From positions 22,501-46,767 of the forward strand of contig MCFG01000475.1 of NCBI GenBank assembly GCA_002104895.1: a DNA stretch of 24,267 nucleotides, given 5' to 3'. This DNA comes from Anaeromyces robustus (lineage: Eukaryota; Neocallimastigomycota; Neocallimastigomycetes; Neocallimastigales; Neocallimastigaceae). The position numbers and the translations under genes are program-made. The notes under the pieces were generated by a model, which saw nothing but the letters and a program-made list of their open reading frames with translations, had not been told where the DNA came from and made no database searches. Positions 422 to 3,400 of the stretch are shown piece by piece (within the stretch, counting starts at the first letter, position 1; each line of letters starts with the position of its first letter).

Positions 422-3400
422 TTAATTATTATTAGTAATGTTATTATTGTTATTGTTATTGTTATTGTTGTTGTTATTATTGTTATCTTCTTCGTCTGAT
501 GATTCAATTTTTTCATGGTCATATTTATCTAAATCGTCAAAATTATCTAATCCATCCAATTTATCTAAACCTTCTATTGGTGGTAAAGGTGCTAAAGGTG
601 ATGTTGAATATATATTATCTGAATCTAATGCTAATCCATCCATGGTATTTGCTAAATAATCTGTTTCTGGTGGTGGTGGTGATGAATTTGTCATATTTTG
701 ATTTAATAATGCTTCACGTTTTTCTCTTTCCATAGTAATCGTTGATGGTATAATTTCAAAGGAACAAAGTAAATCTTTATCAACAGACATAATAGCACCA
801 TTATTATCAAATTCACCACAGTAATTTGGTGCACTGAAAACAGTTACTAAAGATCTATTACCAAAGAATTCAAAACCATCTTCTACAATCATGTGTGCTA
901 TTAAGAATTATTGATGAAATTAAATAATAAATAATAAAAATGAATAATAGTTATAAATAATAATAACAATTATAATAATAATTATAATTATAGTTTAATT
1001 ATACAATTAAATTAATAAAATATAATATATATATATAATATTTTATATATACAAAAAAAAAATAAAATTTATAATAAACTTATTGATAATAATAATAATA
1101 ATAATTATATATATACCTCTACAAACAAGATCAAGATCGTTTCTATCTAAGAATTTTTTGACAATACGTTTACCGAAACAGTAACTTACACCACGTTCAC
1201 TATATAATATTATTTTTTTGATATTTAAATATATTTACATTATTTATACATATAATTAATATTATAAAATATATATATATATTTAAAATATAAATTTATA
1301 TTATTAAATAAATATAAATTATATATATATATATTTACCTTTCCTATTAATATTATAAATTTATTATAATTGTTATTGATTATTATTATTTTTATTTTGT
1401 ATAAAAAAAAAATTAAAAGTTTTATAATAAAAAAATTCATTTAATATATATAAACAACATTTCATCATATTTTTTTTTTTATATAATATTATTTTAATAT
1501 ATTGTTTATAAAAACAATTAGACGTTGTAAAAAGATATTTACCTCCCTATTATTATTTCAATAAAAAAAAATAAAATAAAATTATTAATAATATTATTAT
1601 TTATAAATTTTAATAATATTTATTATTATAATTTTAATAATATTTATTTTTCATTTTTTATTTTTAATTTATTTATTTAATTTGATGATATTTACCATTC
1701 ATATGCAGTTTCACTTGGATCTGACCATAATAAATCTATTTATATAATAAATATTTTAAATATATATATATTATTACATTATTAATATGTTTAATGGATT
1801 TAAATTAATATTATTATTTTATAAAAGCTTATGTTAAAATTTACCATTTAATAAACCATTATCTGGTACATCCGTTGGACGTTCTACATATTCATTTATA
1901 GTTTTTATTTATAAAAAATAGAGAAATATAAATATATTTCATTTCATTCCTTTTTTATTTATTATTTTATATATATATTTTTATACTTACGAATTCTAGT
2001 AACATCTTCATAACTATTTTATAAAAAATATATATATTTATATATTTATATTAATTGATTAATATTAAATTTTTTTTAAATCATTAATATACATAAACTT
2101 AAAATATTTATTTATAAATATATATTTTTTTTAACTTACTCAATTAAATCTGGAGAAAGACCACCATGTACACAGAAAATTTTACCTATTAGTGAAAAAA
2201 AATAAAAAAAAAAATAATTTATTAATAATATATTTTAATTAATTATATTTAAAAATATTAAATATAATTAATTGGAATTATAAATATATACCTGCAACTA
2301 CAGCAGATATTGGTAAACAATTAAATACATCTGTAAAAGCTTTCCATATCTTTAAATTACATCTTCTTTTACATTCATCAAAGAAACCATATACTTTTTT
2401 TAAAAATGATAATTTAAAATTTAAATAAAATATATATAAATTATAAATATTAATAATATATATATATATATATAATTTGATAATTATTATTATTATATAT
2501 ATATATATATATTTTTTATTTTTTTTAAAAAAAAAAAAAAAATTAATATATTTTATATTTTATTTATATATAAAATATAAATGATTTATAATACCTTTAT
2601 TAATTGAAGCACATTCATGATTTCCTCTTAAAAGGAAGAAATTTTCTGGGTATTTAATTTTGTAAGCAAATAATAAAAGAATTGTTTCTAAACTACGTTT
2701 ACCTCTATCAACATAATCACCTAAGAAAAGATCTATAATGATAATAATATATGAAATAAATAAAATAATAAAAAAAATTAAAAAAATATATATAAATATA
2801 TAAAAATTTATATAAAAAATAATTAAATATAATTTAGATATGCTATTTAATATTATAATATATTATATGACAGTAAAATTATAAAATAAAATATTTTATT
2901 AGAAAATAATATTTACAATTAGTTTGTGGTGGGTAACCCATTTTATCAAAAATTCTTAATAAATCTTCATATTCTGTTATTTATTATGATATTTTGAGAT
3001 GATAATAATATAAAATTTTAATTGATTTTTTTTTTTTTTTTATTTTTAAAATAAATATTATATAAATATATAAATAAAAAAAGGATAATATATATATATA
3101 AAAATAATAATATATTAATAAATAAGAAAAAAAATATTTATATATTTATATATGTATATAAATAGTTTAATTATTATATGTATATTTTTTATAAAACAAT
3201 TATTTTCTACTTACGTCCATGAACATCACCAGCAATAGCTAAAGATGGATTTGGAGTAAGATGAAGAAGTACGGGTTGATCTAAAAATATTTCTCTAACT
3301 TTTGTTAAAAGTGTCAATATTTCTGAATTTTTAATACATACATTTTTAGCATATTTACTATTCATATTTGTACTACTATTCGGTGGAGGTTTTACAGCTA

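What the first reader, a model, noticed from the sequence alone, without database searches (positions are those of the whole stretch)
1339..1546. Two consecutive microexons of 4 and 5 nt in a PPZ phosphatase
Between exon 8 (ending TG) and exon 11 (starting TGAACG) the PP1 alignment needs nine nucleotides. They are found as GGAG (1543-1546) and GAAAG (1339-1343), each flanked by a normal acceptor (..TAATAG) and donor (GTAAAT). Joining them gives W-E-E-S-E-R-G-V, the PPZ sequence class, and makes the H319-H394 spacing exactly 75, as in PP1 (H173-H248). Exons this short are rare, because a spliceosome cannot easily define them, and two in a row is rarer still.
Basis: partly seen in the sequence, partly recalled or inferred. 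Interest (0 to 1): 0.85.

Follow-up and report, generated by a model that had tools for sequence, protein, structure and literature searches.

The report
Two tiny exons in fungal phosphatase
A phosphatase gene of what looks like an anaerobic gut fungus appears to be stitched together through two consecutive exons of only 4 and 5 letters, and a second, diverged copy of the gene in the same genome has the same two tiny exons, so they are very probably real and old.

Summary
On the minus strand, exon 8 and exon 11 of a PPZ-type phosphatase are 496 nt apart. Of 66 possible GT-AG chains there, one supplies the required 9 nt: GGAG (1546-1543) plus GAAAG (1343-1339). A spliced aligner trained without the tested introns picks the same exons with two protein queries; 0 of 500 shuffled gaps reach the real score. 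A second PPZ-type gene in the same genome, 75% identical in the catalytic domain, has microexons of the same lengths, phases and position with different letters, GGAA and GACAA (shuffles 1 of 500). In six other PPP genes the aligned part has no internal exon under 43 nt. The exons therefore very probably predate the duplication and are spliced in constitutively, most likely stepwise by intron definition (inferred). Skipping either one alone breaks the frame. No RNA data were available. Tiny, adjacent and fungal microexons are each in print, so this is a striking new member of a known kind; my searches listed none from anaerobic fungi or PPZ genes.

The parts
3215..3854 (-). exon 1 (640 nt): start codon, Gly-2 and Ser-rich N-terminal extension, start of catalytic domain
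2917..2973 (-). exon 2 (57 nt)
2595..2732 (-). exon 3 (138 nt)
2292..2393 (-). exon 4 (102 nt)
2140..2185 (-). exon 5 (46 nt)
1991..2013 (-). exon 6 (23 nt), itself under the usual 30-nt microexon limit; also 23 nt in the paralogue
1845..1883 (-). exon 7 (39 nt); my first model began it at 1880, corrected to 1883
1696..1735 (-). exon 8 (40 nt), ends ...GAATG, phase 2
1547..1695 (-). intron 8 (149 nt), GTAAAT...TAATAG, one AG in it (at its end)
1543..1546 (-). microexon 9, GGAG (4 nt): third base of the W codon plus one E codon; phase 2 to 0
1344..1542 (-). intron 9 (199 nt), GTAAAT...TAATAG, one AG in it
1339..1343 (-). microexon 10, GAAAG (5 nt): E codon plus two bases of S; phase 0 to 2
1200..1338 (-). 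intron 10 (139 nt), GTAAAT...TATAG, one AG in it
1117..1199 (-). exon 11 (83 nt), starts TGAACG, (S)ERGVSY
422..897 (-). exon 12 (476 nt): end of catalytic domain, acidic Asn-rich C-terminal tail, stop

Best explanation
The window's minus strand carries an intact PPZ-type phosphatase gene in which nine coding bases (the end of W, then E-E and most of S, just before ERGV) are split by three ordinary GT-AG introns into two microexons of 4 and 5 nt. Shown: the exons, splice sites, reading frame, uniqueness of the solution, and the same arrangement in a diverged paralogue. Inferred: they are included in essentially all productive mRNA, because each alone would break the frame and leaving out both would remove three residues including the W. 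Inferred mechanism: stepwise intron-definition splicing. In the window gene each of the three short, very AT-rich introns has a single AG, at its own end, and a donor that pairs well with U1; removing one intron enlarges the neighbouring exon, so both sides of a 4-nt exon need not be bound at once. Donor pairing with U1 is somewhat stronger at the microexons (7-8 of 9) than at the other introns of the two genes (mean 6.0). Inferred origin: introns gained or kept close together before the PPZ duplication, the exons then held by selection on the protein.
For: Exact letters and sites. One of 66 chains gives 9 nt. Gapless match to Candida Ppz1 (5jpf) and PP1-gamma across the junction. Spliced aligner with splice profiles from 17 other introns recovers 4+5 in both genes with both queries at intron penalties -14, -30 and -38 on the whole genes. 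Shuffles 0 of 500 (A) and 1 of 500 (B). Paralogue GGAA/GACAA, phases 2-0-2. The genome's own PP1 has WSENDRGV unbroken; 0 of 23 internal exons in the aligned parts of six other PPP genes is under 43 nt. Two U1 genes with 5' end ATACTTACCTGGC. Microexon donors 7, 7, 7, 8 of 9 against mean 6.0 in the other 19; 56 of 8855 relabellings as high, a test chosen after seeing the data. In human MPC1, both introns beside a 4-bp exon are spliced separately even when the exon is cut to 0 bp (PMC9929638, one section read).
Against: No cDNA or RNA-seq. No gene from another species could be fetched. The motif count does not show many such exons genome-wide: 193 against 142 in reversed order, while the tool's own controls gave 551 and 482. 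In the paralogue 9 of 1377 chains give 9 nt, so its solution is singled out by donor quality and protein sequence, not by length; two of its acceptors here score low (2.3 and 7.0, others in the domain 9-20), and the gap holds 12 AG, so the single-AG layout of the window gene is not shared. On the short exon 8-11 fragment the aligner drops the microexons at high intron penalties (-60 for A/Ppz1, -50 for A/PP1 and B/Ppz1, -40 for B/PP1).
Confidence: 0.9

Rival explanations
1. The two islands are zero-length recursive splice sites (AG directly before GTAAAT) that remove one 496-nt intron in steps and leave no bases behind.
For: In the window gene both microexons end in AG followed by GTAAAT, an AG|GT junction as at ratchet sites.
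Against: It would join exon 8 to exon 11 as E-C-E-R, losing the W and three residues. In the paralogue the islands end GGAA|GTAAGT and GACAA|GTAAGT, with no AG before the donor, so this reading fails there.
Confidence: 0.03
2. Both microexons are a regulated pair: included together for active enzyme, skipped together for a variant lacking three residues beside ERG, or skipped singly to make unproductive mRNA.
For: Lengths 4 and 5 sum to 9, so double skipping keeps the frame while single skipping gives an early stop in both genes. The same lengths are kept in both paralogues. The W is not universal: 3 of the 6 other PPP genes (L051, L054, L055) lack it.
Against: No isoform data. The W is present in 5 of 5 PP1/PPZ-type sequences aligned, so a form without it may be inactive. 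The frame relation follows from any exons cut out of an intact reading frame and needs no regulation.
Confidence: 0.1
3. The gene is a decaying copy, or the gap is an assembly or sequencing artefact, and the islands are coincidences.
For: A very AT-rich, low-complexity region where errors are easy.
Against: 550-aa open reading frame over 12 coherent exons, gapless catalytic-domain alignment apart from two residues before GDVHG; shuffles 0 of 500; the same structure at another locus on another contig.
Confidence: 0.02
4. A different set of exons supplies the residues, for example one longer exon or non-GT-AG sites.
For: In the paralogue eight other 9-nt chains exist.
Against: In the window gene one GT-AG chain of 9 nt exists, and the gap has no GC dinucleotide that could act as a GC donor. 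Each of the eight alternatives in the paralogue needs at least one weak donor (GTTATA, GTAGAA, GTTTTA or GTTTAT), and none gives WEDN. AT-AC introns were not enumerated.
Confidence: 0.03

Closest known systems
Human MPC1 4-bp constitutive microexon (PMC9929638; abstract, outline and one results section read)
   Same: 4 nt, not a multiple of three, constitutive, its two introns spliced separately
   Different: a single microexon with strong exon-definition elements in its introns; here two in a row in a fungus with short introns
Adjacent plant microexons, e.g. rice Os08t0562700 with 5 nt and 12 nt (PMC8831610; passages read)
   Same: two neighbouring very short exons, one of them missing from annotation
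   Different: 12 nt against 4 nt; a plant; validated by RT-PCR sequencing there, by sequence alone here
[quoted passage not shown] search listing and starts of abstracts only)
   Same: several consecutive microexons
   Different: alternatively spliced and human; here probably constitutive
Phanerochaete chrysosporium P450 microexons, shortest exon 6 bp (PMC1184071; passages), and Tuber melanosporum nank codon-sized microexons (mentioned in PMC3689799 and PMC4986451; passages; original paper not seen)
   Same: very short exons in fungi
   Different: other gene families and lineages; P450 exons 6 bp or more; Tuber ones codon-sized and alternatively spliced
Trichoderma virens Xlr2 20-nt microexon (PMC11121469; start of abstract and passages)
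   Same: fungal microexon
   Different: 20 nt, single, regulated by glucose
Fungal PPZ phosphatases such as Ppz1 (PMC8836105; start of abstract and passages)
   Same: PP1-like catalytic domain after a variable N-terminal extension; A-G where PP1 has D-E

Membership tests
microexon | exon of at most 30 nt between two spliceosomal introns | tested here: met
   4 and 5 nt between GT-AG introns of 149, 199 and 139 nt
microexon | present in mature mRNA | not testable with these tools
   no RNA data held; indirect support from protein alignment and paralogue
microexon | kept in an independent gene | tested here: met
   paralogue on another contig, GGAA and GACAA, same phases
PPZ phosphatase | PP1-type catalytic domain | tested here: met
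   Pfam PF00149 and PF16891; Ppz1 and PP1 chains by sequence; gene A only
PPZ phosphatase | N-terminal extension before the catalytic domain | tested here: met
   about 140 residues before the STPPase_N match at 144-199
PPZ phosphatase | closer to PPZ than to PP1, with a separate PP1 in the genome | tested here: met
   best chain Candida Ppz1, 459.1 against 450.1 bits for PP1-gamma; identity 68.5 against 67.9% for A, a narrow margin, and 71.0 against 66.8% for B; own PP1 89.5% to PP1-gamma
PPZ phosphatase | neutral residues (A521, G522 in Ppz1) where PP1 usually has D-E | tested here: met
   VVAGKIF in A and B, IIDEKIL in own PP1 (signature from PMC8836105)
PPZ phosphatase | D at the positions of Ppz1 D566 and D615 (K in PP1) | tested here: not met
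   E (DPSE) and N (FFGNR) in both genes, neither D nor K (PMC8836105); hence 'PPZ-type'
recursive (zero-exon) splice site | AG directly followed by the donor, no bases retained | tested here: not met
   AG precedes the donor in the window gene, but the paralogue's islands end in AA before GTAAGT

The most novel reading that the evidence does not exclude
An obligate pair of 4- and 5-nt microexons, fixed at one point of PPZ genes since before the duplication, in which both must be spliced in order; the pair may exist throughout anaerobic fungi or further early-diverging fungi, and partial skipping may serve as an off-switch for the phosphatase.
Probability: 0.25. Interest if true: 0.65.

Novelty: new member of a known kind. 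Interest (0 to 1): 0.55.

Why it matters
Two exons of 4 and 5 nt in a row are close to the smallest that splicing is known to use, and finding them in two diverged genes suggests that this fungus handles them reliably. If confirmed, they are a natural test of stepwise, intron-by-intron splicing outside animals and plants. They also warn that routine annotation of AT-rich, intron-rich fungal genomes is likely to drop such exons and so truncate or shift conserved proteins.

Tried and rejected
Orthologues: exon 12 as protein in viral contigs (3 pattern stretches, 0 confirmed) and in genome contigs (29 stretches, 0 confirmed) gave nothing. Both collections are viral or prokaryotic, so this says little about other fungi.

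Spliced junction as a degenerate 20-base pattern in viral contigs: one stretch, L076. The match straddles the end of one ORF (150 aa) and the start of another (131 aa) on a viral contig, in another reading frame, so I take it as chance.

Genome-wide count of TAATAG-N(1-12)-GTAAGT: 193 (102+91), against 142 (73+69) for the same hexamers in reversed order. The tool's own controls (patterns read backwards) were higher, 551 and 482, so no genome-wide excess is claimed. From the roughly 100 listed of the 193 I chose 20 by hand for short, exon-like spacers. Judged by eye, 4 of 20 had flanks worth a look (L056, L060, L070, L072). Of these 4, one (L072, AACAAA, 6 nt) reads as a plausible microexon, without homology support; leaving it out keeps the frame too.

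Intron similarity between the paralogues: blastn hits among these AT-rich introns are not specific (A1 matched all 12 B introns) and were not used. The branch-point scan found TTAAT-like words in most introns and none in some, so it was not used.

Zero-exon recursive splicing, artefact or pseudogene, and other exon choices were considered and rejected (see rivals).

Full report
What was claimed and checked. Reading the minus strand and building the gene gives 12 exons, a 1653-nt CDS and 550 aa with one stop, at the end. My first model began exon 7 at 1880; the correct start is 1883, which restores R-I-Q-R-P-T-D-V-P. Letters, coordinates and splice sites of the two microexons are exactly as stated. 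H319 and H394 are 75 apart; the PP1 comparison numbers are recalled.

Is it more than chance? The stretch between exon 8 and exon 11 is 496 nt and holds 5 AG and 9 GT. I listed every chain of GT-AG introns of at least 30 nt: 66 chains, of which one supplies nine bases. Six of 66 stay open; the other five join exon 8 directly to exon 11 (one) or insert 36, 93, 117 or 120 nt of unrelated sequence (four). I then wrote a protein-to-genome spliced aligner whose donor and acceptor profiles were trained on 17 introns of the two PPZ-type genes, leaving out the three introns at the tested place in each gene. With Candida Ppz1 and with human PP1-gamma as queries (letters taken) it chose the 4- and 5-nt exons in both whole genes at intron penalties -14, -30 and -38. 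At -14 it also added spurious tiny exons at the poorly aligned N-terminal end in 3 of 4 runs; these vanish at -30. On the isolated exon 8-11 fragment the solution holds from -20 to -50 (Ppz1 query) or -40 (PP1 query) for the window gene, and to -40 or -30 for the paralogue; beyond that the local alignment stops at one side. Dinucleotide-preserving shuffles of the gap reached the real score in 0 of 500 cases for the window gene and 1 of 500 for the paralogue.

The strongest evidence is a second gene. A search of the window's own assembly (G000, 70.2 Mb, 769 contigs) with the spliced protein found another PPZ-type gene on contig 36 (fetched as L049). Its model has 13 exons and 570 aa. Between its exon 8 (...GATTG) and exon 11 (TGAAAG...) are GGAA (L049 2727-2730, acceptor AAATAG, donor GTAAGT) and GACAA (2882-2886, acceptor TTTCAG, donor GTAAGT), giving W-E-D-N-E-R-G-V-S-Y; the stretch WEDNERGVSY is also that of Candida Ppz1. 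Lengths, order and phases (2, 0, 2) are those of the window gene; the bases differ (GGAG/GGAA, GAAAG/GACAA). The two catalytic domains are 75.3% identical. In this gene nine of 1377 chains give nine bases, so length alone does not single it out; only the 4+5 chain has consensus donors throughout and gives WEDN, and the aligner chooses it with both queries. Two acceptors there score low, 2.3 before GACAA and 7.0 before exon 11, against 9-20 elsewhere in the domain.

Controls. The genome's own PP1 (L050, 89.5% identical to human PP1-gamma) has the corresponding WSENDRGV in one uninterrupted stretch. The same aligner (penalty -38, PP1-gamma query) applied to the six other PPP loci found gave 29 introns and 23 internal exons in the aligned part, the shortest 43 nt; a 12-nt terminal piece in L050 looks like an end effect. 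The method therefore did not scatter microexons into those AT-rich introns. Parts of these genes outside the alignment were not examined.

How it probably works. The three introns are short (149, 199 and 139 nt in the window gene; 111, 151 and 171 nt in the paralogue). In the window gene each has one AG, at its own end; this tidy layout is not shared by the paralogue, whose gap holds 12 AG. Two U1 snRNA genes in the genome carry the 5' end ATACTTACCTGGC. The four microexon donors make 7, 7, 7 and 8 Watson-Crick pairs with it over nine positions; the other 19 donors of the two genes average 6.0, and 56 of 8855 relabellings are as high (a test chosen after seeing the data, on four donors). In the window gene the microexons end in G and the donor lacks +5 G (GTAAAT); in the paralogue they end in A and the donor has it (GTAAGT). 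I infer intron-definition splicing in steps: one intron goes first, the microexon is then part of a longer exon, and the next intron follows. A human 4-bp exon behaves compatibly: its two introns are spliced separately even when the exon is cut to zero (PMC9929638, one section read). The order of removal here is unknown.

Consequences of skipping. Leaving out microexon 9 or 10 alone shifts the frame and meets a stop 2 to 19 codons after the W codon (stop at codon 368 or 364 in the window gene, 354 or 337 in the paralogue). Leaving out both keeps the frame but turns E-W-E-E-S-E-R-G into E-C-E-R-G, and D-W-E-D-N-E-R-G into D-C-E-R-G. The W is present in 5 of 5 PP1/PPZ-type sequences, but missing in 3 of the 6 other PPP genes (L051, L054, L055). 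This fits constitutive inclusion; it would also allow a regulated pair, for which there is no direct evidence.

What organism. The window is 7-30% GC by kilobase, and the genome holds many CBM_10 (fungal dockerin) domains: 150 matches among the 150 scored of 683 candidates, and none in 14 prokaryote controls. From recalled knowledge that points to an anaerobic gut fungus (Neocallimastigomycota). The tool gave no name.

Known or new. Microexons of 1-15 nt, including adjacent ones of 5 and 12 nt, are described in plants (PMC8831610, passages); 4 bp in human MPC1 (PMC9929638); 6 bp in a basidiomycete P450 (PMC1184071, passages); codon-sized ones in Tuber (mentioned in PMC3689799 and PMC4986451, passages); 20 nt in Trichoderma (PMC11121469, passages). 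My ten paper searches listed no report of microexons in anaerobic fungi or in PPZ genes; (microexon + anaerobic fungi) returned 0 papers. Several of these searches matched far more papers than were listed, and the library is open-access only. I therefore rate the finding as a new, unusually small member of a known kind.

Family membership. The gene is PPZ-type by domain content, N-terminal extension, best solved relative and the A-G signature, though the margin over PP1 is narrow for the window gene (459.1 against 450.1 bits; 68.5 against 67.9% identity). One reported PPZ feature is not met: the positions of Ppz1 D566 and D615 hold E and N in both genes (PMC8836105).

Noticed in passing
[quoted passage not shown] changing D615 to K made yeast Ppz1 refractory to Hal3 (PMC8836105), so Hal3 control may differ here.
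   Followed up: partly
L049 2576-3077: The paralogue has one more intron after SY, so four consecutive exons are 40, 4, 5 and 20 nt; exon 6 is 23 nt in both genes.
   Followed up: yes
window 13999-15186 (plus strand): A 395-aa uninterrupted ORF with an alpha/beta hydrolase match and a C-terminal cupin match just under its cut-off, in a kilobase of 30% GC against 13-15% in the neighbouring ones; possibly acquired from bacteria.
   Followed up: no
window 20406-21512 (plus strand): Two ORFs that match successive parts of S-adenosylmethionine decarboxylase, presumably exons of one gene.
   Followed up: no
L072 799-804 (minus strand): A possible 6-nt microexon (AACAAA) between AT-rich stretches, joining two low-complexity coding exons in frame; no homology support.
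   Followed up: partly
G000 contigs 31, 56, 179, 193 and 222 (one search list): The string TAATAGGTGTTGTAAGT recurs five times among the listed hits; perhaps a coding repeat of a gene family rather than a microexon, not checked.
   Followed up: no
L077, L078: Two diverged U1 snRNA genes with the same canonical 5' end.
   Followed up: partly
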